From the NCBI GenBank assembly GCA_022539475.1, contig VCMS01000198.1, forward strand, positions 103,182-167,181: 64,000 bases of DNA. The letters are read 5' to 3'. This document shows, in pieces, positions 1,882 through 60,131 of this stretch. The notes under the pieces were generated by a model. That model was not told the origin of the DNA and did not search any database. It was given only the letters and a program-made list of their open reading frames with translations. A program made the translations under genes and the position numbers. Position 1 is the stretch's first letter, and every line of letters begins with the position of its first letter. The DNA is from Gracilaria domingensis (taxonomy: Eukaryota; Rhodophyta; Florideophyceae; Gracilariales; Gracilariaceae).

Positions 1882-1906
1882 AGCTGCAGAAGTTCTGCAG
1901 CTTGAC
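1878..1906. repeat. perfect 13-bp hairpin
   Basis: The arms GTCAAGCTGCAGA (1878-1890) and TCTGCAGCTTGAC (1894-1906) are exact reverse complements with a 3-nt loop. It immediately follows the larger inverted repeat. Confidence 0.85.
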
Positions 1907-1939
1907 TGACTGGAGCCTGGATACCGCTATTTAAGCAGC

Positions 1940-5455: not shown

Positions 5456-5548
5456 GGTTATGGGCCCAGAGTGACGGAAAGAAGAAGAAGATCAATACCC
5501 TTCTGGACCAGACCAGACACTCTCTTGACCTGTACAACGCCAACCAAC

Positions 5549-7267: not shown

Positions 7268-7822
7268 TGTAAGATACTGAGCCGTGACGGTTGCAATGTT
7301 GACACTGTAAGGAAACCCGCTCGCCGGATGGCGTTGTTGTAGTAGACATATTAGTAGTAGTAGTAGTAGTCCACGCGTATGCCGGTGGCAACTAGTGCCC
7401 CGTGATCGGTAAGTCGTACACGTGTGTGTCGACGGCGGAATAGGTATTTATTTTCGCCAGCTCGGCTGTAGCCACCATGACAGTAAACCAAGGTGCTTCC
7501 TACTAGGTTCTTCGTCTTGTTTCCCGTGGCACGGATCCTAAGTCGTAGTAGGAACCCAGCTTGTCTAAGACCTGCACAGGCTGTTCTGCGGCGATATCAC
7601 TACCGTTGCACCGGCTCTCTGGCTAGGCGCGTGGTACCTTTTCTGGACTGCGCGTGTCTCCGTACTCGGTTTCACCACAGAGTGCCGTGGACTACTCCGC
7701 ACCTTCAACGACCGTCTTTTCCGACTCGGCAGCTCACACGGCCTTACACCCCGTGTGCCGCGCATCCACACCACCGTTCCTGGACATTCTCTTGAGTAGT
7801 CGCTTGTGCGCACTATCTCACA
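7268..7822 (+). repeat. gypsy 5' LTR
   Basis: 555 bp, TG...CA. It is identical to 17234-17788 except for three transitions (near 7480, 7499 and 7780). It contains a (TAG)n run near 7351-7368 and TATTTATT at 7445-7452, a possible promoter box. After the LTR a candidate primer-binding site begins with TGG at 7825. Confidence 0.96.
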
Positions 7823-7919
7823 ACTGGTCTCCCGACCTAGAACGGTTTCTCGTAGAAGAATAGATTCGTTTTTGCCGTATCGGAAGTAAGGAGTAGCCTA
7901 AAAAGCTGCACAACCCCTC

Positions 7920-14620: not shown

Positions 14621-14688
14621 TGATCCCTCTCAAAACAGGTTCGAGCTTCCTGCTCCGAAGCGGTAATGATCCCTCTCAAAACAGGTTC
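14606..14688 (+). repeat. 46-bp tandem duplication over the pol stop
   Basis: A 37-nt block that includes the last Pol codons and the TAA is repeated exactly at 14606-14642 and 14652-14688. The second copy lies outside the reading frame. Confidence 0.9.
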
Positions 14689-15289
14689 CAGCGTCATGTC
14701 TAATTGACATTGCTTCTTCGTAGCAGCGCTCTTCTCCGTGTCGGCTCATTGCCTCAGCACACGAAGCACAGATGAAAGGAGACGGCACACGGAATGCGTT
14801 TGAGCACTTTGCGCAATGCGCAGCACGCGCTGTAGAACCCAGCAAGGACGCGGTGCACGCGGCGGCGCCCAGCAAGGACGCACCATGCAACGGGGAGCGA
14901 CAGCACCAGGCGCGCATGCTCTCTAGGCCCGCATACGGCAGGGAGCGCCTGGAAGCGCCAGAGGCTACTTGCAAGGATAATCAAAATATCTGTCGCGGAA
15001 ATTACCCCTCCGCAAACGGTCAAAAACGGCGATTACTCTTTTGCCTGATATCTCGGAAACGAGGCCGTTTCAGAGGCTGAAAACACGCGATTTGGGCTCC
15101 TGGCGCCCTCAAAATACTTAGGATTTTTTGAGTGCCAGCGCGCACGCCCTACGCGCATTACTGATTACCGAATCGGTTACCAAGCGTGCGCTCGTGCATG
15201 GCGGTACAGGAGCTCTCAAAAAATTCAAAGAGTTTATTTGAGCAGCATTGCTGTCCACAGAGTGGATTATCGCTCTCGACTGACACGAT
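14621..15289. other. noncoding spacer between pol and the antisense ORF
   Basis: Contains short direct repeats (CCCAGCAAGGACGC at about 14849 and 14868) and the 17-nt motif also present at 1103 (here 15123-15139), with a partly complementary CTGGCGCCCTCAAAA upstream. As it lies between two convergent coding regions it could hold the 3' ends of both transcripts. Confidence 0.5.
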
Positions 15290-17032: not shown

Positions 17033-17218
17033 TGTCGTGATGAACCGAAGCGGGCGTCGAGGGCGAAACGAAAAGATTGGAAGGCGAAGAGACCCGAGCA
17101 CGGTATGGCATGGAGTTAATGGAACAGAGAGCGAGGGCGGATGCGCGGTATGTGAAGCGGGCTCCGAAGGCGGACTTCAGCGTTTCAGACGCGAGGTTGT
17201 CCGAGGACGGACAACAAG

Positions 17219-17233
17219 CTAAGAAGGGGGTTC
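17219..17233 (+). other. polypurine tract of the gypsy element
   Basis: AAGAAGGGGG ends three bases before the 3' LTR, where the primer for plus-strand synthesis is expected. Confidence 0.65.
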
Positions 17234-17788
17234 TGTAAGATACTGAGCCGTGACGGTTGCAATGTTGACACTGTAAGGAAACCCGCTCGCCGGATGGCGT
17301 TGTTGTAGTAGACATATTAGTAGTAGTAGTAGTAGTCCACGCGTATGCCGGTGGCAACTAGTGCCCCGTGATCGGTAAGTCGTACACGTGTGTGTCGACG
17401 GCGGAATAGGTATTTATTTTCGCCAGCTCGGCTGTGGCCACCATGACAGTAAACCAAGGTGCTTTCTACTAGGTTCTTCGTCTTGTTTCCCGTGGCACGG
17501 ATCCTAAGTCGTAGTAGGAACCCAGCTTGTCTAAGACCTGCACAGGCTGTTCTGCGGCGATATCACTACCGTTGCACCGGCTCTCTGGCTAGGCGCGTGG
17601 TACCTTTTCTGGACTGCGCGTGTCTCCGTACTCGGTTTCACCACAGAGTGCCGTGGACTACTCCGCACCTTCAACGACCGTCTTTTCCGACTCGGCAGCT
17701 CACACGGCCTTACACCCCGTGTGCCGCGCATCCACACCACCGTTCTTGGACATTCTCTTGAGTAGTCGCTTGTGCGCACTATCTCACA
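17234..17788 (+). repeat. gypsy 3' LTR
   Basis: 555 bp matching the 5' LTR at all but three positions. It is followed by the second copy of the AGCTC target duplication (17789-17793), after which copia coding resumes. Confidence 0.96.
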
Positions 17789-17793
17789 AGCTC

Positions 17794-20091
17794 ACAGCCT
17801 CATATTCTTCCGAGTCAAATGGTCGAGCAGAAAGGCTGAACAGAATGCTCTCGGAAATGATCAGGTCGGTCCTTTTTGACCTCTCCCGGATACAACCTGC
17901 CTTACCTAAGCCGGGTCGGTTCTGGGAAGAAGCGCTCTATACGGCCAATTACGTGCGCAACCGATGCTTAGCACGTGGGATGCATGCGCAGTACAAAGGA
18001 ATGACACCATTCGAAGCTGTGACAGACGAAAAACCAGACCTTTTCCACCTCCGGGTATATGGCTCCACAGCCTACATGGTACGCCCACCGCCGTTCCGCA
18101 AAGGCGAGAAGTTTGCGTCTCGAGTGTGGAAAGGCGTACTGGTTGGATACGAGACCTCCGGGTTTCGTGTATACGTGCCAGACCGACAGCAAATCTATGT
18201 ATCACGTGACGTCAGATTTGACGAGACCAGAGCAATACAGGACACACCACCGGCATCTGCAACTCGAGAACCCTTCGAACTCGAGCTCGGAGAAGACAGT
18301 GCCGCCCAATGCGACGCAAACGCAGAGAAAACAGAGACAAAATGCGCACCACAGCCAACCGAACCGAACACAAGCCAGGTACAGCACCCGAATGAAGATG
18401 GAACTGCACCACGAAGATCAACGAGAATCAGGAAACTGACCGAACGCGCAAAGGAATCACTGCCCTGGATGTCCAACTTCGGTGCCCAGGCCTTGCTCAC
18501 ACTTGAGAACAACATCAGCCCATCGGCGCGGCTACCGCTTACCGCAGAGGAGGCTATGGAAACAGAGGAAAAGCAAGAATGGATCCATGCGATGCGGTCA
18601 GAACTCCACTCACTAAATGAGAAGGATGTGTTCATAGAAGACCACATGCCACCCGACAGAAACCTCATCCCCTCCAAATGGACGTTCGATATTAAGCGAA
18701 ACGATAAGGGGGAGGTCACACGATACAAAGCGCGGTTCGTAGCCAAAGGTTTCAAGCAGCAGCAGGGGGTGGACTCCGGGGAAGTATTCGCACCGGTTTC
18801 AAAACTGGCAACGTTCCGGTATCTCATCGCGCACGCCGTACAACACGACCTTTCTGTTAGGCATATCGACATCAAGACCGCTTTCTTACACGGTGAACTC
18901 GAAGAAGAAATCTTCGTCAAACCACCATCGCTCTCCGAAGAATTACGACGAGAATTTCCTTTGAGGGAAGGATCAGTATGGAGGCTTAAGAAATCCCTTT
19001 ATGGACTGAAGCAAGCAGCACGCGCGTTCTACACAGTGTTCTCCAAAGCTCTACTCGAACTTGGGTTCAGCAGCGCAGAAAGTGACCCAAGTCTCTTCAC
19101 TCTCAAACACGACGATTTTGGATGGATCATCCTACTGGCATATGTACACGATCTTATCGCGGCAATCAACAATGACCATGCTTACTCTTGGCTTCTAGAA
19201 GGACTACGAGATCAATTCGACCTGCGTGACCTGGGAGAGGTGAAGCATTTTCTAGGCATCGAAGTGATACGAGACCCGGTGGCTGGCTCAATTTCTATCA
19301 CCCAACGCCAGTATATCGAAGACCTACTGATCAGATTTTCTATGAATAACTGCAACCCCAGGAGCGTGCCGATTCCAACATCTGCGGACCTTTCGTTCGC
19401 TGAAGCTGACAGAACTGCCAATGCAGATGTACCTTTCCGAGAACTGATCGGAGCTCTGATGTACGTAGCCAATGGAACAAGACCGGATATCCAGGTCGCT
19501 GTATCATTCTTGTCTCGACACATGCACGACTATTGCGAAGAACACTGGAAGCTAGCGAAGGGAATACTACGATATTTGAGAGCCACTATTAACCTTGGTA
19601 TAACTTATACAAAAGGTAAGTCACATTTGACCGGATATAGCGACAGCGACTGGGCGCCAAAGCATTCGGGAAGGAAATCAACCACTGCCTACGTATTTGC
19701 CCGCAACGGTGGTGCCATTTCGTGGAGGTCGCAGATGCAGAATGTCGTAGCGCTCAGTACAGCAGAGGCAGAACTAATCTCTCATAGCGCAGCAGCAAGA
19801 GAAGCTCTGTGGCTCAGGAAACTAGAACGAGATATTGCTGAACGCGACGAATGCCTTACTATTTTTGGGGACAATACGAGCGCCATTACGCTATCAAAGG
19901 AACACCGCGTAACCGATCGCACTAAGCATATCGACACAAGTGTCATGGCGCAGAGGGAGTACGTTTCAGATGGTCTCATAATGTTTGAACACTGTCCAGG
20001 ATCGCATTTACCTGCCGACATGCTTACAAAGGCTCTTGGCAGAACGAAACTCTGCCTCTTTAGAAGCATGATTGGTGTGACCTTGGTGTAG
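17794..20091 (+). pseudogene. copia Gag-Pol, 3' part (integrase end, RT, RNase H)
   Basis: Continuation of the copia frame cut at 7267; with the insertion and one TSD copy removed the joined frame is about 1338 codons. It begins with the end of the integrase core (NGRAERLNR; the Glu is residue 586, exactly 36 after D550), then the reverse transcriptase (SKWTFDIKRN, HIDIKTAFLHGELEE, KKSLYGLKQAARAF) and RNase H (GYSDSDWAPKHSGRKSTT, ALSTAEAELI). The catalytic box reads AYVHDLI at 19141-19152: the first Asp of the universal YVDD is His (CAC at 19147-19149). This should abolish polymerisation. No other stop or shift is seen in this part. It ends at TAG 20091, 36 nt before the 3' LTR. Confidence 0.93.
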
Positions 20092-24216: not shown

Positions 24217-25869
24217 TCATTGTCTCCTGAACATGCTGTGAAACCCCTGAGGGACTGCCTGTGGTACATCTGCCGATGCAACGACCCCTAAATCCTTGGC
24301 GTCGAGAACGAACATAATTGACCTTTGTATCCTAGTATCGAGGACTACCACTAAGATACATCCGTCATCTTCTTGAACTCCATTTGGATCCGGAACAAAG
24401 ACAGGTTCGCTAACCATTCCATACTTAAAACCCTTGGTTATTCGTTTCCCGGTGTCAACGTCAACCTTGGATACTGTTCCAAAATGGTATCGATTCTCCG
24501 AGGTGGAGACTCCATACACGTATCTGTGCCGTTTCCTTTCTTTGCTAGGATTAATAGATGGGAGCTCCAACATGTGATGATTTAACATCTCCATCTGTAC
24601 CGGATAGGGCTTCCGCACTCCACTTCGTTTCGCTATCATGAAATTTTTCAGACTTACTCGAACCAGTGAGTTCTTGGCAATTTCTAAACCTTTGCATAGG
24701 ATTCTAACGTCGAAGTTATGCACGATAGACCCATCTTCGTAATGCGATAAATCTATGACAATATCGTCTTCAGTTTCATAAGCGTTAATTGTATGGAATG
24801 CAAACATAGGACTACTCTCGTAGACGGCAACGATTTCCTTCTCCGACCTTGAGATTACGACGAATTTTGCTTTCGAATTCTTGTCGAAATGCAGACCAGC
24901 CATTACTGACTGATGGAAATATATCTTCCACCACAAAATTGTTAAGGGGTAGAGGATCATCACTACGTAGTTCTCCGTGGTAGCGAAGCTATGAACGTAT
25001 CGCGGGGTGTCCCAAAACCTGCATAATGTTTCCGGTTTTCCTGTTTGTCCTATTTTGAACACATGATATTCTACACGAGGGCCCCCAAATGTGTAGGTGA
25101 AGTTGATAAACTCGCCTTTATCGGAGTCATAATGACCGTGAGCAGCTGCCATAAATCCCTTAAGGGACGGGTTTATGTCTTGAATCTTGAAGAAGTGATC
25201 TGCTTCCAATGTAGTTTCATCCAACTTTATGCTTTGCTGTGAATCCGTTCTGAGCACGACTCCTTTTCCTGGTATGTAATTGAGACAGACATTGACGTTT
25301 TGAGGAGGGGGGCGGCCTGTCATCGGATCAACTGAATCTGGTTGAAACAACTGAAAGAACTTGCTCAGCATCGAACGAGACGGGTATTTGTAGCCAAATG
25401 TGAGGTCTTTATAAGAATCCGACTTTGTCCCCTTAATGCATCTAACCTTCGAATCAGAGAGAAATCGGTTTCGATAATACACTAGGTTCCGATGCGTGTC
25501 TATTCTGAATGCATGAATGAGAGAAAGTCCATCAAACCAATGCGTGAGCTTGTACGGAACTCCATCCTTGTGTGTTGCCTCAAACGCTCCGGGACCAATG
25601 CGATAGAGCGTTGCCCGGTCTAAGTAGTTTGGAAGATGTCCATGCACAAGAAGACATACTTCGTTCGGAAGTTCAGGAACAGATTTCCATCCGATTGAAA
25701 TGTTTGGGATGAGTTCTGATGTTTCTGTGGCAGTAGAAGTCTCTGGTTTGACAATTAGAGCGCTTGGGACAACTTTTCGACCCGGGGAGCGCGAGTGACA
25801 TAGTGCGTATCGACGATCGGGGGAAGGAAGTGTCCTGAGCTGTGACAGAGACGATACGAATGACAGCAT
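24217..25869 (-). CDS. carotenoid cleavage oxygenase (RPE65 family)
   Basis: 550 aa from the first ATG at 25869. Family enzymes are seven-bladed propellers with Fe(II) held by four His that cleave a carotenoid or apocarotenoid double bond with O2. The four ligands can be placed: H244 (AAHGHYD), H293 (YVHSFATT), H359 (FAFHTINAYE) and H544 (GFHSMF), at family spacing. The early glycine-rich turn is RIGPGAFEATHK, then LTHWFDGLSLIHAF. Length is normal. The first 45 residues are Ser/Arg/Pro-rich with few acidic residues, compatible with a plastid transit peptide, but this is not certain. Substrate (beta-carotene, apocarotenal or other) cannot be told from sequence. It stands alone with long noncoding flanks. 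Confidence 0.93.
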   Translation of the reverse strand: MLSFVSSLSQLRTLPSPDRRYALCHSRSPGRKVVPSALIVKPETSTATETSELIPNISIGWKSVPELPNEVCLLVHGHLPNYLDRATLYRIGPGAFEATHKDGVPYKLTHWFDGLSLIHAFRIDTHRNLVYYRNRFLSDSKVRCIKGTKSDSYKDLTFGYKYPSRSMLSKFFQLFQPDSVDPMTGRPPPQNVNVCLNYIPGKGVVLRTDSQQSIKLDETTLEADHFFKIQDINPSLKGFMAAAHGHYDSDKGEFINFTYTFGGPRVEYHVFKIGQTGKPETLCRFWDTPRYVHSFATTENYVVMILYPLTILWWKIYFHQSVMAGLHFDKNSKAKFVVISRSEKEIVAVYESSPMFAFHTINAYETEDDIVIDLSHYEDGSIVHNFDVRILCKGLEIAKNSLVRVSLKNFMIAKRSGVRKPYPVQMEMLNHHMLELPSINPSKERKRHRYVYGVSTSENRYHFGTVSKVDVDTGKRITKGFKYGMVSEPVFVPDPNGVQEDDGCILVVVLDTRIQRSIMFVLDAKDLGVVASADVPQAVPQGFHSMFRRQ

Positions 25870-27865
25870 GCTCGAAAATGGAGAGCGAGGAGAAAGCAAT
25901 TGGATGAAGGAACTTCAGGTCGCCTTATGAGCCGAGATGAAGTTACCCATGCATCAGATGGGGAGGAGAGCGGTGAAGCTGATATTTGTACTACACGTAG
26001 TAACAGTCAAATGTTTAGCATGGATGAGGTGTAGGGCGTAAGATTCGGTCTTGAGAGGAGGCGTTTCTATGAAGTTGGGTATACTCGTGGTCATGCCATG
26101 CACACACATTTTTGCGTTCAAGTGCATGAAAGGCTAACCTTCAGTTGGACATAACCAAACTGGCAATTGGGTTTGTCTACAAGGATACTACGGCCACTAA
26201 TTAGTCTCTAGCTCAAGAAAGGGTCGATAGATATTGAATGGCAAGCTCTCGCGCGAAGTGACCATAGCGATCCAGGTGTGGAGCTGGCGTACATAAGGCT
26301 TATGCACATGCGTTTGTAACTTTGCGGTTACAGTATTGCCACTAAAGACAGCAACGCAAGAGCACAACTTCACATTATCACAAGCCTTTGCAACAACCCC
26401 GGACGAGCCTCGTTTTGTGCCGGTTGATTCATTACAAGGTAGGCGACTGCATTACACATTGTAGGAAAAAAAGATAATGTTACGGTCCTGGGTATCCTTT
26501 TAACTACGATGTTCCACAGCGAAGAGCAGTAAAAACTTGTGGAATTCGCTAGATGCATTTCGTGGCCACAGTGGTGGTTCACAGAAATAAGTACGCTTTG
26601 AAACCATACCTCTGCCCTTTGACTTTCTTCGGGAAAATGTGTCAAAGAGATTTATCCTAAAGCAATGAAAGCGTGGCAGAAATGGTATTGGATGAATGGA
26701 GTTCTACAAACTTCTAGGAGGGGTTTTACGTAGATTATCCGCCAATCATAAGTGACAATCTAATGCAAGTAGTTTTGGTTGCGAGAAATTTAATCCACGA
26801 TGGGCAACAAGATGGTATAACGAAAATGGGATGGTAGCTTGAAGCAGGCTATTGTTCTTTCCATCATTCCGATGGATGTTGGGTACGAAAGCACGTATGT
26901 ATCCAAGATCTGAATAAAACTCATTGAGGCAACCAGAGCAAAACCTTCAAACCAAGCTAAGGTATGATTATCTTTTGCCCTGCACCTGCACAGGCGCATA
27001 TGTAAATTTTGACAGTGACGTCCGTTTTATTGGGTGAGTCAATATTTAGGGGTGGTACTCGTTTTGCTGTTACTAATGATGATGGAACTAAATTGGGGTG
27101 AATTGTTGCAGTTTTGAAGACCGTCGATTGCTTCTGCGGTAACTTGTGTATATATGCTTAGTGAGCACTACTACCAGTCATTTCGGGAACTTCGTCTGCA
27201 GGGTAGCCCTCAAGGTTAGTCCCAGCCATTCGTTGTGCTAGGATACGATGCGTACGGCGCAGATACGACCACCTCGGCATGATTGTAATTCCAGGAATTA
27301 GAAACGGGTTTCGTAGAAGAAACTGTTTCTGTCAACAGTGTTTGCGTTCCTTTTATCGCCCCAGGAACTACGTAGACTGCTAGGACTGCAAGGACTGCAC
27401 GGAAAAATCTACACGCAGGATTAACGCTACCTTTGGGTACAAGCGCAGCGAAAGGCGGAAACATGCTGGGGCAGCTCTTTCGCTAAATGGTAACTTTACA
27501 TACAGAGGGCATTTCCGTTGCTGGTTTGGAAGGTGCAGAACTCTTACCTTTCGTCGCTAGCTTGAATTGCTGCCCGCTTCCTTTTGTAGAGGATACACCT
27601 TCAAGCAGTTCTCCAGAATTCATTGTACGTGTACACGCATTGGTACCAATCGCTCATCAGAGTATTATTTGTTTTTTTTGTATTTTGCGGAAATGAACAC
27701 ACAGCCCTCACTTCATTACAGAAAGAGAAACACTGCGACCTGCGGCGAGTCGACTCGACTCGACCGCAGATCTCTTTCGTTTCCGAAGAGGAAGCGAACG
27801 TCTTTCTGTGCAGTGCCTGAGGCACACCACGGGTGGCGCAGTTATCTGCATCCGTTTCGCACTCG

Positions 27866-31285: not shown

Positions 31286-33892
31286 TCAGGACTTATACGA
31301 AATCGATCCGGGGATAAACGGAGTGCATTCAATATCCCAGATTTGCTCAGCGTATTCGCGGATGGTACGATCGGAAGAGAACTTGCCCATACGAGCGACT
31401 GAAACAATAGTCTTCTTCACCCAATTAGTCTTATCCTTGAACGCCTCATCCACGCGGTCCTGTGCATCCATGTACGAGCTGAAGTCGCGAGTCACCAGGT
31501 AGTAGTCATTGTACGGTTGCAACGCATGCATGATGGGTTTGCTTGTCTCCGAACCACAGTACGTGTTGTTCTGGATCTGATGCATCGCCTCTGAAAGCCG
31601 GTCATCACGAACCTTGTACTCGCCGTACTTGAGTTGATTACGCGCATGCTCGATTTCAGGAGTGTGAAGTCCAAACACAAACATGTTCTCCTCACCAATT
31701 TCTTCCCGAATCTCAATGTTGGCTCCATCCATCGTACCGATGATAAGTCCGCCATTCATCACAAACTTCATGTTCGATGTTCCAGACGCTTCCATACCCG
31801 CCGTAGAGATATGCTCAGAAAGGTCATTCGCCGGGATGATCACTTCGGCGAGCGTCACATTGTAGTTGGGAAGGAAGAACACCTTGAGAAGGTCACCAAT
31901 TGCAGGATCGTTGTTCACTACGTGGGACACACCATTGATCAAACGAATGAAATGCTTCGCCTGCACGTACGAAGCGGCTGCTTTGCCTCCAATCACAACA
32001 ACCTTGGGGACAACATTCGCCTTCTCCTCGGGGCTCATTCCCTTAATCTTGTTGTAGCGACAAATGACACCAAGAATGTTCAGCAACTGCCGCTTATACT
32101 CATGAATACGTTTGATTTGAATGTCAAACAGAGCGTCAGTATTAACTTCGACATCGAACAACTTCTTGATGTAAGCGGCCAAACGTTTCTTGTTTTCCTG
32201 CTTGGACTCAATGAATTCACGTTGTAAGTCAGCGTTGTTCACATACTGCTCTAAACCTCGGGCGAGTTCAAAGTTCACAACCCATTCATCGGTTTCAATC
32301 CATCGAGAGATTACAGCCGCAAGAGTCGGGTTTGCCTGCTGAACCCAACGACGAGGGGTCACACCATTGGTCATATTGAGGATCCTGTAGCCGTCCTTGG
32401 CGAAGTCAGGGAACAAGCGGGATTTTACGAGGCCAGAGTGGATGGCAGCGACTCCATTCACAGTATGAGAACCCACAACTGCAAGTTGGGCCATACGCAC
32501 CATCTTTGGATATCCATCTTCAATAATGCTCATGCGCTGAAGCTTATGTCCATCATTAGGATACTTCTGAGCAGTAGCCTCAAGATGACGGCGGTTGATC
32601 TCGTATATGATCTGCATGTGTCTGGGAAGGAGCTTCTCCATGAGAGACACGGACCATTTCTCCAGAGCTTCCGGCAGCACAGTGTGGTTCGTGTAAGAGA
32701 ACACCTTCTTGACAGTTGACCAGGACGCCGTCCAGCCCATTCCTTCCTTGTCCATGAGAAGCCTCATGAGCTCAACAACTCCAATAGTGGGATGGGTGTC
32801 ATTAAGCTGAATGGCAACCTTGGTAGGGAGATCGGTCAGCGGGCGACTGATCTTCTTGAAGCGACGCAAAATGTCCTGAAGAGTGGCAGACACAAAGAAA
32901 AACTGCTGCTTAAGACGCAGTTCTTTTCCAGCTTCGGTAGAATCATTCGGGTACAAGACTGATGAAATCTTTTCGGATGCCTCCTTGTTCGCAATAGCAC
33001 CGTAATAGTCACCACGGGAGAAGGACGCCAGATCGAATTCCTTGGCTGGTTGAGCGCTCCACAGACGCAGATTGAGCGTGTTGTACGTATCATAACCAGG
33101 GATCGGAGAATCGTAGGCGACGGCGCGAACGATTTCACCGCCAACCAGTTTGAAGCCGTGACCCGTAGACTCGACATGACCATAGAAGCGAACGGGATAT
33201 GTGACATCAAGACGTTCGATTTCCCATGGGTTGCCATGGGTGAGCCAGTAGTCTGGAATCTCGATCTGATGGCCATTAACAATTCTCTGTTCGAACATAC
33301 CATACTTGTAACGAATTCCATAACCCCATGCTGGGTAGTTGAGCGTAGCAAGAGAATCCATAAAACAGGCGGCCAGACGACCCAAGCCGCCGTTTCCCAG
33401 GCCAGGATCTCTTTCCTCACGAACGATTCGCTCCATGTCAAATCCAAGACCATTCAAGGCGTCGAAGAACTGATTATGGATACCAATATTCATCAAGGCG
33501 TTCGTCAAATAACGGCCCATGAGGTACTCTAAGCTGAGATAATACACTCGCTTCACGTCCCTTTCCGTGAAGTATTGTTGCGTATCATTCCACGACTCGA
33601 TGAGACGATCTCTGACCGAGAGAGCGGTAGCCTGGTAAGCACCGAACGAATCCATGTTGTAGCGAGTTCTGGCGAGAGTGTACTCCACATGGTTTACGAT
33701 TTGTTTCTGAACGGCTGGGACGTCTCGAGCGAGGTACTGAGACATGAGGGAGGAGAGAAGCTTATTCCTCTTCTCGCTGGACTCTGACGTTGCATCCTGA
33801 GGCGTGGTGTGGCCAGTGACGGAGTAGCGACTCTCCGGAGCCGAGATGGTTCCGTGAACAAGATCACGGAACGAAGATGTACGGGCCTTCAT
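31286..33892 (-). CDS. glycogen/alpha-glucan phosphorylase
   Basis: 868 aa from the first ATG at 33892 (MKARTSSFRDLVHG). It releases glucose-1-phosphate from alpha-1,4-glucan with phosphate and the cofactor pyridoxal phosphate. Recognisable blocks: YYLSLEYLMGR, DPGLGNGGLGRLAACFMDSL, AIQLNDTHPTIGVVELMRLL, MTNGVTPRRWV, FDIQIKRIHEYKRQLLN, and the cofactor-lysine segment EASGTSNMKFVMNGGLIIGT with K709. Length is that of cytosolic or glycogen-type enzymes; the long insertion of plant plastid isoforms is absent. The 70-residue N-terminal extension contains Ser/Thr and could be regulatory. In red algae such an enzyme would act on cytosolic floridean starch. A non-ATG upstream extension of 30 residues is open but unlikely to be used. 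Confidence 0.97.
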   Translation of the reverse strand: MKARTSSFRDLVHGTISAPESRYSVTGHTTPQDATSESSEKRNKLLSSLMSQYLARDVPAVQKQIVNHVEYTLARTRYNMDSFGAYQATALSVRDRLIESWNDTQQYFTERDVKRVYYLSLEYLMGRYLTNALMNIGIHNQFFDALNGLGFDMERIVREERDPGLGNGGLGRLAACFMDSLATLNYPAWGYGIRYKYGMFEQRIVNGHQIEIPDYWLTHGNPWEIERLDVTYPVRFYGHVESTGHGFKLVGGEIVRAVAYDSPIPGYDTYNTLNLRLWSAQPAKEFDLASFSRGDYYGAIANKEASEKISSVLYPNDSTEAGKELRLKQQFFFVSATLQDILRRFKKISRPLTDLPTKVAIQLNDTHPTIGVVELMRLLMDKEGMGWTASWSTVKKVFSYTNHTVLPEALEKWSVSLMEKLLPRHMQIIYEINRRHLEATAQKYPNDGHKLQRMSIIEDGYPKMVRMAQLAVVGSHTVNGVAAIHSGLVKSRLFPDFAKDGYRILNMTNGVTPRRWVQQANPTLAAVISRWIETDEWVVNFELARGLEQYVNNADLQREFIESKQENKKRLAAYIKKLFDVEVNTDALFDIQIKRIHEYKRQLLNILGVICRYNKIKGMSPEEKANVVPKVVVIGGKAAASYVQAKHFIRLINGVSHVVNNDPAIGDLLKVFFLPNYNVTLAEVIIPANDLSEHISTAGMEASGTSNMKFVMNGGLIIGTMDGANIEIREEIGEENMFVFGLHTPEIEHARNQLKYGEYKVRDDRLSEAMHQIQNNTYCGSETSKPIMHALQPYNDYYLVTRDFSSYMDAQDRVDEAFKDKTNWVKKTIVSVARMGKFSSDRTIREYAEQIWDIECTPFIPGSISYKS

Positions 33893-35012
33893 GACCGACA
33901 CGGGCAACAAACACGAAAGGCACGCGAAGACAGGGGCGGTGAACGCTTGCAGACGACGGCGAAGACGAGGTCGGTGCGCCAAAGTGAAAGAAAGCTGTGG
34001 AAGCTACAACAAACCGCGACGACGACCGGACTCGTGCGGGTGAAGGGGATCGAGTGCTGGTCACAGCCGCGGCGATTCGAGTGCTTTCTTATCGAAAAGT
34101 TGTCAAGTCAATCCGAGCTCACAATTTTTTCGCGTCGGCTCTCTCCGTGTGGGAAGGAGCGCGCGCCAGCCTGTATCGGTCGATTTGCGCGCGCGGCGCA
34201 GGTGATTGGATGCGGTTAGATCTTGCAAATCTGTGGCCCCCAATGGGACGCGCCCACGTACGACAGCTGCACTGGCTGTGCAAATGTGCATCTGTCGGTT
34301 GGGGGAGAGGCGCCCCGCGGCAGTTGCCGCCAGTGAACAAGCACCACAAGCGACGCACGTTGAACGGCGGAACGGCGTTGGCACGCAGTGACGTCAGCAA
34401 TCATTACCAGCAGCGCTGCTGTTGTATGTTGCAGCGCGAGAAAGCACGTGAGCGCGCCAGATACTTGCCCGATTCCATCTTCAACCCGCCTCCCTGTCGC
34501 ATTGGACCTCTTGGGTGAATGCGGCTTGTAGTGGAAATGCACCTCCGATTTCATGTCCCAACAACCCCACACGTCGATTCAGGCGGCCTGGCATGGCTGA
34601 TGTCTAATCTTTTCGGATAATTTTGATATCCTCACAGTTACGTTGCCAATCACTGTCCAGCTGCGGTGTCCTGCTCTGCGGATCGGAGAATAAAAAAGCT
34701 GGTCCCGCCCACCGCGCCGCTCAAAATATTGCTGCCGGCAAGGCAATTATAGACGACTGTTAACACACTCCTCACATGTTGCCGTGCAAATCTTTCCTTC
34801 ATCGATTTCTTTATTGATCCCGCGTAGAACGACAAGTTAGGTACGGCACGAAAAGAGCATTCTTCGGGAAACACTATTGCTTTCCTTCTACGCATAAGGT
34901 TAAGGCACCGGGTGCGTACAGAGTACATCAATGTACAACATCGTGTTGAGCATCAGCGGTTGCGACACAAACCTCTTCCGCAACACACGCTAGTTATTCG
35001 AATCACACATGC
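33893..35012. other. intergenic, promoter side of the phosphorylase gene
   Basis: GC-rich in its first 600 nt; overlapping short ORFs on both strands have no domain. Nothing else recognised. Confidence 0.55.
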
Positions 35013-47102: not shown

Positions 47103-47409
47103 GAGAGCAGGCCACTAAACGCTTCTCCTGCTGCCGCCATCCAAGCACAGCGCTTCGGACACCCATGTTTCTACGATTCATTCGCACCTTGGTGATACAG
47201 AATAAATTATCAGGAAGCCTCCTCGCCACAGGTGGCCGTATACAGGGTACAAGGGTTCGTTCGCTCTTATTCTTAAGCGCACCAGACGACCCTTCGCGCT
47301 CCGCGCTCCGCTGTCGGCCGTCCGAGTCCCCATTGTTTTTTCTGTAGTCATTCGCTGCACCCTTTTGAGTTTCTCCGAGCATTATCTACGTTGGCAACTC
47401 AACTTCAAT

Positions 47410-48084
47410 ATGGAGATGGTTGATCCGATGTTAGTGGCCAAGTTTCGCGCCAACGTCTCAGTCAAGGACAGGAGGTACCGTCTCAACAAATACAAGCAAT
47501 GTTTCGTTGGCATGGAAGCCATCGACTGGCTGGTTAATTCTGGCCATGCCAAGACCAGAAGCGAGGCAGTTGATGTCGGTGAAAGGATGCGCCATATGGG
47601 CTTGTTTGACCATGTCGTGTTCGAACATGGCTTCGAGGATAAGAACTACTTCTACACCTTCAACGATGACGAGCCGCTGGCCATGGATGATCTACCGGAC
47701 ATGACCGAGAGAAAGGGAATTGCTCTTATCGCTCATAACAATCTCAAGTCTACTCTCATAGAATGGACCCAGAAGCACAAGGATGCCCTCGCCAATCACA
47801 CGCTCGTGGCCACAGGAACAACTGGCGGTTTGATAAAGGAGAACACTGGTCTTGATGTGCGGCTCATGAACAGTGGACCACTCGGTGGTGATCAACAAAT
47901 TGGTGCACTCGTGGCAGAGCAACGTATTAGTGTCCTGATTTTCTTCTGGGATCCCCTCACGGCTCAACCTCATGAAAGCGATGTGAAAGCCCTGCTTCGT
48001 CTCGCAGTTCTCTGTAACGCAGCAATTGCCATGAATGTGTTCACTGCTGACCTGCTCATATCGGCTATTTCGAGAAAGAAGTAA
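47410..48084 (+). CDS. DEP domain fused to methylglyoxal synthase
   Basis: 224 aa from ATG 47410. Residues about 5-85 are a DEP domain (YRLNKYKQCFVGMEAIDWL, RSEAVDVGERMRHMGLFDHV, DKNYFYTF), a eukaryotic module for membrane or receptor-signalling contacts. Residues 102-220 are a full methylglyoxal synthase, which converts dihydroxyacetone phosphate to methylglyoxal and phosphate: IALIAHNNLK (K113), ATGTTG (134-139), SGPLGGDQQIGAL with D161, FFWDPL with D181, PHESDVKALLRLA with H188 and D191, and a C-terminal AMNVFTADLLI. The residues known as catalytic or phosphate-binding in the bacterial enzyme (Asp71, Asp91, His98, Asp101 in E. coli) are all present. This is a true MgsA-type synthase, not the regulatory MGS-like fold of carbamoyl-phosphate synthetase. 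The gene has no intron and no targeting signal. Confidence 0.95.
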   Translation: MEMVDPMLVAKFRANVSVKDRRYRLNKYKQCFVGMEAIDWLVNSGHAKTRSEAVDVGERMRHMGLFDHVVFEHGFEDKNYFYTFNDDEPLAMDDLPDMTERKGIALIAHNNLKSTLIEWTQKHKDALANHTLVATGTTGGLIKENTGLDVRLMNSGPLGGDQQIGALVAEQRISVLIFFWDPLTAQPHESDVKALLRLAVLCNAAIAMNVFTADLLISAISRKK

Positions 48085-55568: not shown

Positions 55569-56045
55569 ATGGAGCCATTGTTCCCGTTCTCGTTCGCCAA
55601 CCGCGAGCTTCGTACGTTACGACAACTGGCGGATCAAATGGAGAACAGTTTCAGGTCTGCAGACGGCACGCAGCACCACGTACCGACGTACGAATATCAG
55701 CGAGATGCGAACAAGGTGCAGCTGGAAGTGGAGTTGCCCGGGGTGAAGCAGGAGCATATCGAAGTTGAGCTTCGTGGGTCACAGCTGTGCATCACGGGGC
55801 GTCGGTTCAAATCGAGCGATTTAGTGGTGGAGGAGCACAAGGAGGGGTCGGAGCAGATTGGAAGCGGAGATGTGAAAATGGATGAGGGGAAGAAAGCTAG
55901 TCTGGTGTATGAGCTGCAGGTGAAAGTTGGGGAGAACGCGGATGAGGCGGGAATCAAGGCTGAGCATAGGGATGGGGTGCTGAAAATGTTGATTCCGTTG
56001 AAGACGATGACGGAAGGTCGCAAGATTGCTATCACGCAGGGCTAA
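55569..56045 (+). CDS. small heat-shock protein (Hsp20/alpha-crystallin)
   Basis: 158 aa from ATG 55569 (MEPLFPFSFANREL); an upstream in-frame ATG at 55545 would add eight residues. The alpha-crystallin domain spans about residues 40-150: QLEVELPGVKQEHIEVEL (strands 2-3), LCITGRR, a charged loop (VVEEHKEGSEQIGSGDVKMDEGKK), then HRDGVLKMLIPL with the conserved Gly-Val-Leu. The C-terminus IAITQG gives the I-X-I motif that docks between subunits. ATP-independent chaperone that holds unfolding proteins; no targeting signal, so cytosolic. It faces a second Hsp20 gene only 94 nt away. Confidence 0.92.
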   Translation: MEPLFPFSFANRELRTLRQLADQMENSFRSADGTQHHVPTYEYQRDANKVQLEVELPGVKQEHIEVELRGSQLCITGRRFKSSDLVVEEHKEGSEQIGSGDVKMDEGKKASLVYELQVKVGENADEAGIKAEHRDGVLKMLIPLKTMTEGRKIAITQG

Positions 56046-56139
56046 ACAGCGTTGGTGCGTGCGAAATGTGTTTGTTTATGCTATGCACAAGTGCAACAAT
56101 GAGTTTGCAAGTAAAGATACGTTGATGATTGATAGAGTA

Positions 56140-56598
56140 TCATGTGTCCAGTGTGATCTTGCGCGACACGGTACGGTTGCAGACGAGCGGGATGTGAATG
56201 GTGAGAATGCCGTCCTCGTACGAGGCGACACGCACGGCGTCGGCATCGGCGTCGCGACTGAGCCTCATCTCGAGCGCGTACACGAACGCCGGCACGCTAG
56301 CACCCGCGGCACACGGCGGCGCCTCCGGCGCGGCGGCGCGCGGCGGCGCGAGCTTGCTGACGCGAAATCGCTTGGCAGACAGCACAAGATGGGCGTCGTG
56401 AATTTCCAGCGAGATGTGCTGCTTGAGCACGCCGGGCAGCTCCACCTGCACGTAGAGGCCGCCCTGGCTCGCCTGGTGGTGGTACACCGGCTCGATGGTG
56501 GGCGGCGTGGCCGAGTGCTTCTGCGAGAGCAGCGCGGCGTGCGAGTGCGGCGCGAACGGGTTGCGCGGCGCGTGCGACTGCGAGTTGGCGGCGAACAT
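56140..56598 (-). CDS. small heat-shock protein (Hsp20), second copy
   Basis: 152 aa, ATG 56598. The same fold as its neighbour: LYVQVELPGVLKQHISLEIH, LVLSAKRF, then YEDGILTIHIPL and the terminal RKITLDT (I-X-I-like). Between them the loop is Ala/Pro-rich (PPRAAAPEAPPCAAG), an effect of the very high GC content. It is convergent with the 55569-56045 gene, so the pair is an inverted duplication or an old pair now diverged: protein identity is limited and base composition differs sharply. Confidence 0.92.
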   Translation of the reverse strand: MFAANSQSHAPRNPFAPHSHAALLSQKHSATPPTIEPVYHHQASQGGLYVQVELPGVLKQHISLEIHDAHLVLSAKRFRVSKLAPPRAAAPEAPPCAAGASVPAFVYALEMRLSRDADADAVRVASYEDGILTIHIPLVCNRTVSRKITLDT

Positions 56599-56828
56599 GT
56601 CGGCGACGGGCGACCGGCGTGCGGCGGCGTGCGGCGGCGGCGTGCGGGCGGCGCGCCATGGCGCAACTCTCTGGCGCGGCGCGCAGCGAGCTGCACTGCG
56701 CTTGGCGCGGCGGTGATTGGATGCGTCGCCGCGCTCTCTTACAGTGCTTTCCGCGCCTCCGCAACCGCCGCAGATCCGTTGGGCGGCGCCGCAGCGCGCG
56801 CCGCCGTCGGTGAACGCCGCGCGCCGCC

Positions 56829-57024
56829 ATGGCGCTGTCGACGCGCGCGCTCGCGCTGTCGCTGCGGCTGCACGGGCTGCACCAGCACGCGCGGCGCTTC
56901 GAGCGCGCCGATCTGCCGGCGGCGCAGCTGCGCTCGCTCACCAACGCCGAGCTGCGCGACGACCTGCACGTGCGCGCGCTCTCGCACCGCCGCACGCTGC
57001 TGCGCCTGCTGCGCGCCGCGCCGC

Positions 57025-57073
<49 letters not shown>

Positions 57074-57404
57074 GCTGCCGCTGTTCGGCGAGATCCTGGT
57101 GGCGCTGTCGCGCGAGCGCACGCTGCACTCGTGGCTGCGCAGCGCGCTGCAGCTGGCGGCGTTCGCGCTGGCGCTGGCGCGGCTGCCGGCGGCGCGCGGC
57201 GCGCGCGCGCCGCCCGCGGCCGTGGCCGCGCTGGGCGCGCTGCTCGCCGCGCACGGCGCGCTGCGCCACCTCGCCGCGCCGCGCGCCGCGCGCGCGCGCG
57301 CCGACGCCGCCGGCGCGCTGCTGCTCGGCGCCGCCTCGCTCGGCGCCGCCGCGCTCGCGCTGCGCGCGCTCGCGCGCGCGCTTACAGTGTCGGCGGCGGC
57401 GTGA
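56829..57404 (+). CDS. DUF202-type three-helix membrane protein
   Basis: 191 aa, ATG 56829. N-terminal helices, then a (GGC)n-encoded run of about 16 Gly (57026-57071), then SRERTLHSWLRSALQLAAFA, which matches the DUF202 signature (RT-x-L-x-W-x-R-x-A-L). Two more hydrophobic helices follow (AAVAALGALLAAHGAL; AAGALLLGAASLGAAALAL). DUF202 is found in bacterial YidH and in the membrane part of eukaryotic VTC polyphosphate polymerase subunits. There is no SPX or catalytic VTC part here. Composition is extreme (Ala, Arg, Leu, Gly), reflecting about 80 percent GC. Function unknown; membrane location is inferred. Confidence 0.7.
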
Positions 57405-57824
57405 GGGCGCGGCGCGGCGGCTGCGGTGCGCGCGTTGCGCGGCGCGCTGTGAGCGTTGCGGCGCGCGCGGCGCGACGCGCTGCGCGGCTGCGTTTGGTGC
57501 CGCTGCGTGCGCCGCCCCGCCCGCCGCGCGCCGTCGCCGCCCCCGCCGCGTGCCGCGTTCCGCGCCGCGCGCGCCGCTCCGTCACGCGCGCCGCCTCCGA
57601 ATTAAAGCCGAGTGCACGGCCGCCGCCGCGCGCTATGCTCGCGCGCCTCTCGCGCTGACTGCGTCGCTCCGCCCGCCACACGTACATAAACCCGCGTCCG
57701 CCCGCCCTCCAGCCTCCCCCCCCCTCTCCGCCCCGCCCCGCACACACACACACACACACACACACCCACACGCAACACACACCCGCACACACCCGCACAC
57801 GCAACACACACGCAACACACACAC
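57405..57824. other. very GC-rich leader with CA microsatellite
   Basis: About 80 percent GC then a C-rich stretch and (CA)n at 57741-57765 followed by related CACACG and CAACAC repeats up to the next start codon. Probable promoter and 5' leader of the Lys/Arg/Ser-rich gene. Confidence 0.6.
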
Positions 57825-60131
57825 ATGGCCGTCGTCGTCAGCGGGGGCGGGCGCCCCGCGCTCGGCCGCGCCCAGGTCGAGGACCTTCTGCACAAGCTCG
57901 CGCGCACGCCCGAGCAGATTCTGGGTGAGCCGCCGCTCGGCCCGCTGCCGCCCAAGAAGCCGCGCCGCAAGCGCCTGTCGTACCAGGCCGGTCTGGCCAT
58001 CGCGCGCCGCTACGCCGATCCGCTCAGCGTGCTGGGCGAGCCGCCTCTGCCCGCCGAGCTGCCGCCAAAGCGGGCGCGAAAGCGCCGCATCACGCCGGAC
58101 GAGCCAGCGCCCGAGAACACTCGAGCCAAGAAGAGGAAGAAGCAGCCGTCGTATCCCGCGCTCAATGCCGCCGCCCCGAAGGCCACGCCCTCTTCCACCG
58201 CGCCCAAGCCCAAGGGCGCGGACGCCCGCAAGCTCAAGCCTGAGCCGCCCATTCACAAGCCGCTCAAGGTCACCGTCAAGCTCTCCTCCAAGTCTGAGGC
58301 CGCGCTTCGACGATCGCTCTCACCCGAACAGGAGCCGATGCCGCCCAAGTCCAAGTCCGACAAATCGCTCAAGTCCTCCTCCGCCAAGGACCGCGCCAAG
58401 GAGTCGCGTCGGGAGAAGCCCAAGCCCAGAATACGCTCGTCGCCCACCGCGCGCCCGGACGCCAAGGAGCCGAAGAGCGCCAAGATACGCTCATCCCCGG
58501 CGCCGCTGCCCGACTCAAAGGAATCCAAGAGAGGTAAGGACAGGCTTCCGTTTCGCTCCTCTCCGTTTCGCTCCTCCCCGTTTCGCTCATCCCCGGCCCC
58601 AATCATGGATGTCAAGGACACGCGCAGGGACGAGGACCGACCTAGATCGAGCGCGTCGCCAGCCCCGATTTCAGAGTCGAGGGACGTCAGGCGCGACGTT
58701 GAGCGGCCCATGCTGCGCTCGTCTCCGCTGCATGCCTCGGATAATAGGGAGTCGAAGAAGAGCTCTGACCGATCGAGACGAAGGCTGTCTCCTGCTGAAC
58801 TTTCAGATGCCAAGGATGGTGACAAGAGGAGACTCCGCTCCTCGCCCGCAAATCATGCTGATTCAAAGGAAGCCAAGAGAGATACGGACAAGTACGTCTC
58901 TCAGAGGAGCACCAGCTCCAAGTCTGCGAAGAAACCCCCCGCGTCGGTTCCGCTGTCCCGTCCCGCTGGTCGCATCCTTCGTTCCGAACCAGCACCACGC
59001 AGGTCCAGCTCGCCGGACACAACAAGGAAGTCCACCAAAGAGCGCCGCGGCGAGAAGAACATGTCGCGAAGAAGAGATGGTTCTGTTGAACGCGGTCGCC
59101 GCGATGAGAAGGAGTTGCACAGAAAACGGAGGGAGAGCTCTGTGGACTCGGCCCCGCCTCGATCCAAGCCGCGTAGCTCTGGAAAGCGGAGGCAACGAGC
59201 ACAAGACGATGATTTTTCCGACAGGGAGCAGCGAGTCTCTCGAGCGACCGAAAGGGAACCGAGCAGCGAGAAGGAGTACGAACGACTTTCTGACCGCGAT
59301 GTGCTTCGCGGAAAGAGCAAGGAGAAGGAGCGGAAGGCACTTCGGGATCAACGCAGAAGCGTTGATAGGGACAGCGACTTTGAGAAGAGCCGGAGACGAG
59401 AAGAGAGGGTCTCTGAACGCAATGGCTACAGGGAGAAGGACAAGCATCGTGGAAAGGACTCGGAAACAGAGCGCGAGAAGCACAGGGACGGTGAACGCGC
59501 TCGCGACCGCGATCGAGACAGAGAAAGATTCCGCAGCAAGGCACCAGAGAAAACGAGGGATCGCGGTTTGAAGAGGGATCTCGAGCGGAGTGGCGAAATG
59601 GAGAAGGAACGTGACCGCAAAGCAATGCGCAAGGAGCATGGGCAGGATTCCGATGCAGCGTACAGACGGTCTAAAGAGCGGGAAGATGTCCCCGTTTCCA
59701 GAAGCTATGAAGCAAGTTCGAAAGGCCGTATTGGATTCAGGTCTGAGCCACTTGACAAGGTCTTGTCCAAGAGCAACCGTGAGATTAGGAATGATGCTCC
59801 CACTAGTCAGAAGGAACGGGATAGAACCAAGGAAAGCACCCCTCGGAAGGCCCCACCCAGTTTGAGGTCAAAACCGGCGAGCGTCATTATGGATTCTGCG
59901 GCAGCCGAATCCAAGTCGCCCACAGAAGTTTCTCGCAACGGCAAAGAGACAGCATCCCCCGCTTCAGCGCACGCAGAGCCATTACCGCGGCCGACAAAGC
60001 ATACTCCTACGAACGAGGAGCTTCGGGTATCGGCGAAGGAACTGGAACGACTGGCAGCTGAGCAACGTGAATTTCTCAGTCAGTTTGACTCCCTCACCAA
60101 GCTGTGTGCTGTCAAAGGAGAAACACAATGA
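57825..60131 (+). CDS. Lys/Arg/Ser-rich nuclear-type protein
   Basis: 768 aa from ATG 57825. N-terminus has a duplicated unit: EQILGEPPLGPLPPKKPRRK and LSVLGEPPLPAELPPKRARK. Residues about 190-370 are a degenerate repeat centred on RSSP...D-x-K-E (for example IRSSPTARPDAKEPK, IRSSPAPLPDSKESK, PFRSS three times). Then come Arg/Glu/Asp/Lys-rich mixed-charge tracts (RERARDRDRDRERF) as in SR-like splicing and transcription-elongation factors. Many basic clusters would act as nuclear-localisation signals. The last residues (SAKELERLAAEQREFLSQFD) are helical and seem to run on into another frame (60067-60627), so this stop may not be the true end. No domain recognised; a nuclear RNA-processing role is inference from composition. 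Confidence 0.75.
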   Translation: MAVVVSGGGRPALGRAQVEDLLHKLARTPEQILGEPPLGPLPPKKPRRKRLSYQAGLAIARRYADPLSVLGEPPLPAELPPKRARKRRITPDEPAPENTRAKKRKKQPSYPALNAAAPKATPSSTAPKPKGADARKLKPEPPIHKPLKVTVKLSSKSEAALRRSLSPEQEPMPPKSKSDKSLKSSSAKDRAKESRREKPKPRIRSSPTARPDAKEPKSAKIRSSPAPLPDSKESKRGKDRLPFRSSPFRSSPFRSSPAPIMDVKDTRRDEDRPRSSASPAPISESRDVRRDVERPMLRSSPLHASDNRESKKSSDRSRRRLSPAELSDAKDGDKRRLRSSPANHADSKEAKRDTDKYVSQRSTSSKSAKKPPASVPLSRPAGRILRSEPAPRRSSSPDTTRKSTKERRGEKNMSRRRDGSVERGRRDEKELHRKRRESSVDSAPPRSKPRSSGKRRQRAQDDDFSDREQRVSRATEREPSSEKEYERLSDRDVLRGKSKEKERKALRDQRRSVDRDSDFEKSRRREERVSERNGYREKDKHRGKDSETEREKHRDGERARDRDRDRERFRSKAPEKTRDRGLKRDLERSGEMEKERDRKAMRKEHGQDSDAAYRRSKEREDVPVSRSYEASSKGRIGFRSEPLDKVLSKSNREIRNDAPTSQKERDRTKESTPRKAPPSLRSKPASVIMDSAAAESKSPTEVSRNGKETASPASAHAEPLPRPTKHTPTNEELRVSAKELERLAAEQREFLSQFDSLTKLCAVKGETQ

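What the first reader, a model, noticed from the sequence alone, without database searches (positions are those of the whole stretch)
47410..48084. Eukaryotic DEP domain fused to a complete methylglyoxal synthase
Seen: one 224-codon intron-free frame holds a DEP domain (residues about 5-85) and directly after it a full MgsA-type methylglyoxal synthase with GGDQQ (D161), FWDP (D181) and PHESD (H188, D191). Known: methylglyoxal synthase is mainly a bacterial enzyme that drains triose phosphate to methylglyoxal when phosphate is short; DEP is a eukaryotic signalling and membrane-recruitment module. Inference: a horizontally acquired metabolic enzyme has been placed under a eukaryotic localisation or signalling domain, giving a regulated source of methylglyoxal. 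I know of no described protein with this architecture.
Basis: partly seen in the sequence, partly recalled or inferred. Interest (0 to 1): 0.88.

Follow-up and report, generated by a model that had tools for sequence, protein, structure and literature searches.

The report
Red-algal methylglyoxal synthase with DEP domain
A red seaweed gene joins a eukaryotic signalling and docking domain to a complete copy of a bacterial-type enzyme predicted to make the reactive compound methylglyoxal, an enzyme that published papers describe as prokaryotic or absent from eukaryotes.

Summary
Window 47410-48084 (+) is one 224-codon frame with a DEP domain (Pfam E 7.8e-21) and a complete MgsA-type methylglyoxal synthase above NCBI's equivalog cut-offs. 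It is not a carbamoyl-phosphate-synthetase MGS fold. The fusion is shared: 12 other database proteins carry both domains, two of them named, Agarophyton chilense and Gracilariopsis chorda. With a truncated 13th, their synthase domains form one clade apart from all 102 DEP-less rows tested. Twelve catalytic or ligand positions are kept in 14 of 14 rows. However, the equivalent of E. coli D20 is Asn in 12 of 14 (Asp in 272 of 273 DEP-less rows), and the long C-terminal tail is missing in 14 of 14. From recalled work, that Asp and a tail Arg form the inter-subunit bridge relaying phosphate allostery. Best reading: an active cytosolic DHAP-to-methylglyoxal enzyme that lost the bacterial phosphate relay and is now positioned or controlled by DEP. 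The enzyme part is well supported; DEP control is inference. The genome also fuses its nearest DEP relatives to a flavin oxidoreductase. No paper on this architecture appeared in the listings I saw. New variant of a known kind.

The parts
47410..48084 (+). DEP-methylglyoxal synthase gene, 224 codons in one frame
   Evidence: Open frame 47206-48084; translation P0001; GC 0.50 and GC3 0.57, within the range of seven neighbouring frames
47425..47661 (+). DEP domain (residues 6-84 from the model; Pfam match 16-84)
   Evidence: PF00610 E 7.8e-21; DEPTOR, P-Rex1 and Epac DEP domains by sequence, DEPTOR and P-Rex1 also among the fold matches
47461..47505 (+). Basic DEP hairpin VKDRRYRLNKYKQCF (residues 18-32), candidate docking surface
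   Evidence: Read from the sequence; strands 19-23 and 26-33 in the model; lipid binding not tested
47662..47703 (+). Linker, residues 85-98, variable in length and sequence
   Evidence: pLDDT under 50 at 89-94; 0-3 identical residues in the ten homologues other than P0003-P0005
47710..48081 (+). Methylglyoxal synthase domain, residues 101-224, without the usual bacterial C-terminal tail
   Evidence: TIGR00160 169 bits, PRK05234 182.8 bits; 1b93 alignment; Foldseek to MgsA structures; tail lengths
47737..47739 (+). Codon of N110, equivalent of E. coli MgsA D20
   Evidence: N in 12 of 14 rows of this family, D in 272 of 273 DEP-less rows
47890..47892 (+). Codon of D161, equivalent of E. coli D71 (catalytic base; role recalled)
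   Evidence: D in 14 of 14 and 273 of 273

Best explanation
A nuclear gene of a gracilariacean red alga makes a catalytically competent methylglyoxal synthase that converts dihydroxyacetone phosphate to methylglyoxal and phosphate. The fold and catalytic residues are shown by comparison; the hexamer and the activity are inferred from the family. DEP begins almost at the N-terminus, leaving no room for a targeting peptide, so the enzyme is probably cytosolic (inference). The two inter-subunit bridge elements that, from recalled work, carry phosphate cooperativity in bacterial MgsA are gone in most of the algal clade. In their place each subunit has an N-terminal DEP domain on a flexible linker, so a hexamer would display up to six DEP arms. 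I propose that DEP, through its basic hairpin or a protein partner, gathers the hexamer at a membrane or signalling complex. Control of the triose-phosphate drain would then be by place and signal rather than by the phosphate relay (inference). The fusion probably arose once from a bacterial mgsA and a resident DEP domain before the sampled lineages split (inference). It is kept alongside glyoxalase-type genes that could remove the product.
For: MgsA equivalog scores above both curated cut-offs. Of 17 positions tallied, 14 are identical in 14 of 14 rows, among them the equivalents of H19, K23, T45, T47, T48, S65, G66, D71, D91, H98, D101 and R107; H21 and V111 equivalents vary, as they do in the DEP-less rows. 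Predicted fold with mean pLDDT 90.6; MgsA structures are Foldseek ranks 1-26, target TM 0.70-0.94. One clade, SH-aLRT 98, 0 of 102 other rows inside. Both domains in 12 other database proteins (seven of these relatives and P0011 rescanned or checked by Pfam in part). D20 equivalent is N in 12 of 14; tail of 22 or more residues in 0 of 14 against 239 of 273. DEP found in 0 of 14 control genomes, MGS fold in 13 of 14. Only hit covering the synthase part in its 77.9 Mb genome. Glyoxalase II gene over cut-off; glyoxalase I-like frames present.
Against: No activity, oligomer, localisation or expression data. D20 is nearly invariant in the DEP-less rows, so its change to N might reduce activity; and two algal-type rows (P0122, P0123) keep the Asp. 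The paper behind the bridge was recalled, not read. DEP diverges faster than the synthase (21-23 of 69 against 70-77 of 119 identical in the five most distant rows), so its role may be loose or lineage-specific. Net charge of the first 95 residues is -4, which does not suggest a general acidic-membrane binder. pTM is only 0.61: the relative placement of the domains is not predicted. The four glyoxalase I matches were all below the curated cut-off (best 112.9 of 120). Ten of the 12 homologues come from unnamed assemblies. Single origin of the DEP part has weak support (70/53).
Confidence: 0.62

Rival explanations
1. An active synthase in which DEP is a passenger or solubility/assembly module without a regulatory role; phosphate control was simply relaxed, as in some short-tailed bacterial enzymes.
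For: DEP and linker diverge faster than the synthase. Short tails exist among DEP-less rows (8 of 273 with 15 residues or fewer, some perhaps cut contigs).
Against: DEP is present in all 12 rows of this family (window included) that look complete at the 5' end; P0011 and P0012 start inside DEP. R50, G57, G64, V69, F75, D77 and Y82 are invariant in the 10 rows; P0122-P0124 were not in that alignment, and by eye P0123 and P0124 lack G64.
Confidence: 0.2
2. A metabolite sensor: the synthase domain binds DHAP or phosphate and has lost most turnover, and DEP passes the signal on.
For: D20 equivalent changed in 12 of 14 rows and tail lost in 14 of 14. DEP is a signalling domain, and MGS-like folds serve as allosteric domains in carbamoyl-phosphate synthetases (established knowledge).
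Against: The D71, D91, H98 and D101 equivalents and eight further catalytic or ligand positions are intact in 14 of 14, which is unusual for a dead enzyme.
Confidence: 0.14
3. Contamination, misassembly or a chance join of two genes.
For: The synthase part is bacterial-type.
Against: One frame, composition within the range of its neighbours, neighbours such as a glucan phosphorylase closest to a chain named cytosolic, and the same fusion in 12 other proteins, two from named red algae.
Confidence: 0.01

Closest known systems
Bacterial methylglyoxal synthase MgsA (E. coli 1b93, B. subtilis 6f2c, Thermus 2x8w and 1wo8)
   Same: Fold, catalytic residues and equivalog score; 55% identity to E. coli over 123 columns
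   Different: N-terminal DEP domain, D20 equivalent is N, C-terminal tail missing, host is a eukaryote
Gracilariopsis chorda 'Methylglyoxal synthase' (P0005) and Agarophyton chilense unnamed product (P0003)
   Same: Same architecture; 71% and 87% identity; members of the same family
   Different: Deposited with an automatic name or none; no paper describing them appeared in the listings seen
DEP domains of DEPTOR, P-Rex1 and Epac
   Same: Sequence of the DEP part and, for DEPTOR and P-Rex1, fold; DEPTOR's tandem DEP mediates phosphatidic acid binding (PMC8439649, passages)
   Different: Not attached to a metabolic enzyme; a single DEP here; lipid binding untested
DEP-oxidoreductase proteins of the same genome (C180, C120)
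   Same: N-terminal DEP, nearest own relatives of this DEP (48% and 44%), joined to an enzyme of the NCBI PRK06370 oxidoreductase subfamily
   Different: The enzyme is a flavin disulphide oxidoreductase; its origin was not traced
MGS-like domains of carbamoyl-phosphate synthetase and PurH
   Same: Pfam PF02142 fold
   Different: Human CPS MGS domain 2yvq only 18% identical; such proteins occur separately in this genome (PurH on C231, CPS large subunit on C16, named by eye from their frames)

Membership tests
Methylglyoxal synthase (MgsA) | Score above curated equivalog cut-off | tested here: met
   TIGR00160 169 > 146.9 bits; PRK05234 182.8 > 84 bits
Methylglyoxal synthase (MgsA) | Catalytic and ligand residues (H19, K23, T45, T47, T48, S65, G66, D71, D91, H98, D101; roles recalled from E. 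coli work) | tested here: met
   14 of 14 rows of this family
Methylglyoxal synthase (MgsA) | MgsA fold | tested here: met
   AlphaFold2 pLDDT 90.6; MgsA structures are Foldseek ranks 1-26
Methylglyoxal synthase (MgsA) | Inter-subunit Asp-Arg bridge that relays phosphate (recalled; common but not defining, said to be absent in a short-tailed Thermus enzyme) | tested here: not met
   N110 in place of D20, no long tail
Methylglyoxal synthase (MgsA) | DHAP to methylglyoxal activity, hexamer | not testable with these tools
   Needs purified protein
DEP domain (PF00610) | Score above Pfam gathering cut-off and DEP fold | tested here: met
   74.2 > 32.7 bits; DEPTOR DEP fold match E 4.3e-7
DEP domain (PF00610) | Membrane or receptor recruitment | not testable with these tools
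   No binding data
MGS-like regulatory domain of CPS or PurH | Attached to the CPS or AICAR transformylase parts, without the MgsA catalytic set | tested here: not met
   Only DEP attached; MgsA catalytic set present
Horizontally acquired bacterial gene | Nested inside, or sister to, a defined bacterial group | tested here: inconclusive
   Separate clade (SH-aLRT 98), nearest other row P0049 unnamed; no sequence known to be cyanobacterial was sampled

The most novel reading that the evidence does not exclude
Red algae run a dedicated, signal-controlled methylglyoxal source. After losing the bacterial phosphate relay, the hexamer is switched by DEP docking to membranes or receptors, so methylglyoxal (or the triose-phosphate drain) acts as a deliberate stress, defence or overflow output. 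It would be matched by glyoxalases and by the methylglyoxal-scavenging guanylureas reported from Gracilaria and Chondrus, and be part of a wider habit of putting redox or metabolic enzymes under DEP control.
Probability: 0.22. Interest if true: 0.8.

Novelty: new variant of a known kind. Interest (0 to 1): 0.6.

Why it matters
Methylglyoxal in eukaryotes is usually treated as an accidental by-product of triose phosphates (general knowledge). A 2024 paper says the synthase is found in only prokaryotes (PMC11897720, abstract), and a 2015 paper on a green alga speaks of eukaryotic species where it is absent (PMC4722173, passage). A conserved eukaryotic synthase with an added docking domain makes enzymatic methylglyoxal production in a multicellular alga directly testable. 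It may also be a natural experiment in replacing metabolite allostery by domain fusion.

Tried and rejected
Rejected: CPS-type MGS domain; contamination or misassembly; viral source (no match with E <= 0.001 in BFVD). One plasmid record of 65 matched over residues 40-219 in one piece (Embleya), which could have meant a bacterial DEP fusion; its stretch has only the MGS domain by Pfam, so it is not one.

Led nowhere: a protein search with only the DEP region of P0006 found just itself among 5 candidates, so it says nothing about breadth. The bacterial donor is unresolved: 148 columns for 116 rows. Cyanobacterial (plastid) origin could not be tested: the plasmid search showed no cyanobacterium among 60 of 65 records and a cyanobacterial centre was not accepted. 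The paper recalled for the Asp-Arg bridge was not held; two searches around it gave one paper on human CPS1 and a list of 10 of 44 papers with nothing on it. dN/dS was not possible without the homologues' DNA.

Limits: both homology searches that worked scored only the 8000 candidates sharing most words and listed 120, so counts are lower bounds. The tree used 14 rows of this family, those 80 loci and 22 of the 193 DEP-less database proteins; the residue counts used all 273 (80 + 193). P0012 starts inside DEP and scores 31.1 bits there, just under the cut-off of 32.7; P0011 scores 18.8. The DEP tree gave the MGS-linked DEPs as one group with weak support (70/53).

Full report
WHAT IS THERE. 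Window 47410-48084 (+) is a single frame of 224 codons; the frame is open from 47206 and ends at TAA 48084. Pfam finds DEP at residues 16-84 (E 7.8e-21) and the MGS fold at 116-200 (E 1.4e-14), both over the curated cut-offs. NCBIfam places residues 98-222 in the methylglyoxal synthase equivalogs: PRK05234 182.8 bits (cut-off 84) and TIGR00160 169 bits (cut-off 146.9). In the PDB the best sequence matches are methylglyoxal synthases (6phe 8.4e-42 for residues 94-219, E. coli 1b93 2e-41 for 99-218), followed by DEP-containing proteins such as DEPTOR (residues 15-89) and P-Rex1 (18-107). AlphaFold2 on a 54-row alignment gives mean pLDDT 90.6 and pTM 0.61, with a loose linker at 89-94. Foldseek ranks 1-26 are MgsA structures and rank 27 is DEPTOR's tandem DEP; the human CPS MGS domain 2yvq is rank 46 at 18% identity.

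WHERE IT IS. The genome has 77.9 Mb in 680 contigs and the window lies on C198. Neighbours include a glucan phosphorylase at 31286-33982, whose best PDB match is a chain named cytosolic alpha-glucan phosphorylase 2 (4bqe), and an ABC transporter gene. GC and GC3 of the gene (0.50, 0.57) lie within the range of seven neighbouring frames (GC 0.47-0.50, GC3 0.38-0.58). The closest named homologue, from Agarophyton chilense, is 87% identical and the Gracilariopsis chorda protein 71%. The host is therefore a red alga of the Gracilariaceae (inference; species not named). DEP is found in none of 14 control genomes and the MGS fold in 13 of 14; the controls named there are prokaryotes.

IT IS A FAMILY. 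Two protein searches found 12 further proteins with both domains (P0003-P0010, P0012, P0122-P0124), plus P0011, which lacks its start but keeps the last part of DEP; two of the 12 have organism names. Rescanning eight of these 13 and related rows by Pfam gave both domains over the cut-offs in P0003, P0005, P0122, P0123 and P0124; P0012 and P0011, which start inside DEP, gave DEP at 31.1 and 18.8 bits (cut-off 32.7); seven of the 13 were rescanned in all, with P0049 and the Embleya stretch as DEP-less comparisons. Whole-protein identity to the window falls to 43-45%, so the fusion is not recent. Of 116 rows in the synthase tree (14 of this family, 102 DEP-less), the 14 form one group with SH-aLRT 98 and no other row inside. 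The tree is a quick one with few columns. The row next to it (P0049) has no name, so the donor is unknown, and no sequence known to be cyanobacterial was sampled. The MGS-linked DEP domains are one group in the DEP tree, but weakly (70/53).

WHAT CHANGED IN THE ENZYME. With E. coli numbering (offset 90, from the alignment), 17 positions were tallied. Fourteen are identical in 14 of 14 rows: the equivalents of H19, K23, T45, T47, T48, S65, G66, D71, D91, P92, H98, D101, R107 and N119. H21 and V111 equivalents vary, as in the DEP-less rows. The equivalent of D20 is N in 12 of 14 (D in P0122 and P0123) while it is D in 272 of 273 DEP-less rows. The C-terminal tail is 6-20 residues beyond A213 in this family, 0 of 14 reaching 22, against 239 of 273; 204 of 273 have both the D and an Arg in the far tail. 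I recall, from work on the E. coli and Thermus sp. GH5 enzymes (Zareian and colleagues 2012, not held; nothing of it was read here), that a tail Arg makes a salt bridge to this Asp in the neighbouring subunit and transmits phosphate cooperativity. On that basis both partners of the relay are gone together in most of the clade. This is the most specific hint that control has moved elsewhere, DEP being the obvious candidate. It is correlation, and two rows keep the Asp.

DEP AND ITS RELATIVES. The DEP hairpin carries a run of basic residues (VKDRRYRLNKYKQCF, residues 18-32), but the first 95 residues have net charge -4 counting K, R, D and E. DEPTOR's DEP pair is said to mediate phosphatidic acid binding (PMC8439649, passages read), which is a lead only. 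Of 10 DEP matches in the genome, 8 are over the cut-off, in seven proteins. The nearest to the window's DEP are two proteins in which DEP precedes a flavin disulphide oxidoreductase of the PRK06370 subfamily (C120 656.7 and C180 647.3 bits, cut-off 620), at 44% and 48% DEP identity. Two others are DEP-DUF547, one of them with a protein kinase. A DEP joined to an enzyme of metabolism thus occurs at least twice by architecture in this genome.

PATHWAY. This is the only one of seven matches in the genome that covers the synthase part of P0001. The other MGS-fold matches, six in number, include PurH (C231) and a CPS large subunit (C16), named by eye from their frames, a 2340-residue frame on C103 that I take for a CPS II/CAD-type protein without reading it, and three weak ones with one stop each. 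Glyoxalase II is present (248.7 bits, cut-off 200.8; 1 of 3 matches over it). Glyoxalase I-like matches number four in two places, none over the cut-off of 120 bits, best 112.9, two of them in one 435-residue frame. A 2026 paper reports methylglyoxal-scavenging guanylureas from Chondrus crispus and Gracilaria vermiculophylla (PMC13208526, abstract and discussion read). Its held main text has no occurrence of the word synthase. [quoted passage not shown] I take this to be the species now called Agarophyton chilense (recalled), which has this gene, so a tight link is not supported.

WHAT IS IN PRINT. PMC11897720 (abstract and passages) states that methylglyoxal synthase is found in only prokaryotes; [quoted passage not shown] The listings of seven searches showed no description of this protein: synthase with red alga (1 of 1 paper listed), synthase or DEP domain with eukaryotes (20 of 617), synthase with alga (20 of 29), Gracilaria with methylglyoxal (20 of 45), synthase with horizontal transfer and eukaryotes (8 of 8), Rhodophyta with DEP domain (2 of 2), and any two of the synthase and red-algal genera (10 of 795, none of the ten naming the synthase). 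Apart from the papers named above I saw only titles and abstract starts, and the library lacks most subscription papers. The G. chorda protein is already in public databases under the automatic name Methylglyoxal synthase, so the sequence is deposited though apparently undescribed.

HOW IT MOST LIKELY WORKS. Shown by comparison: complete DEP, complete MgsA fold, catalytic residues intact, family-wide fusion, loss of the tail. Inferred: DHAP to methylglyoxal activity, hexamer, cytosol, single origin by transfer, DEP-based placement or control.

Noticed in passing
L008:2840-4891 (+) and L009:2606-4858 (+): Two proteins with DEP in front of a mercuric-reductase/lipoamide-dehydrogenase-like flavin oxidoreductase (PRK06370 subfamily, over cut-off); a second DEP-enzyme fusion in this genome.
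   Followed up: partly
L012:2251-4584 (-): Protein kinase, DEP and DUF547 in one 777-residue frame; L010:2419-4326 (-) carries DEP-DUF547 without the kinase.
   Followed up: no
L106:3-710 and 631-2352 (-): A DEP protein whose frame overlaps a downstream frame that looks by eye like a phosphoinositide-kinase catalytic part (DRH..N and DFG-like motifs, recalled).
   Followed up: no
L097, L098, L099: Three MGS-fold matches each with one stop inside; L097 looks by eye like a decayed carbamoyl-phosphate synthetase large subunit.
   Followed up: no
window 5309-20091 (+): Several frames that read by eye as Ty1/copia- and Ty3/gypsy-type retrotransposon gag-pol proteins; no family search done.
   Followed up: no
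window 24217-25899 (-): Carotenoid-oxygenase-type protein (RPE65 family, E 1.7e-93).
   Followed up: no
window 56001-58000: GC 0.745 stretch with long overlapping Arg/Ala-rich frames on both strands; probably compositional rather than several genes.
   Followed up: no
L108 and L109 (genome C22:428809-429786, -): Two glyoxalase I matches in tandem in one 435-residue frame, like the two-domain enzyme of plants (recalled).
   Followed up: no
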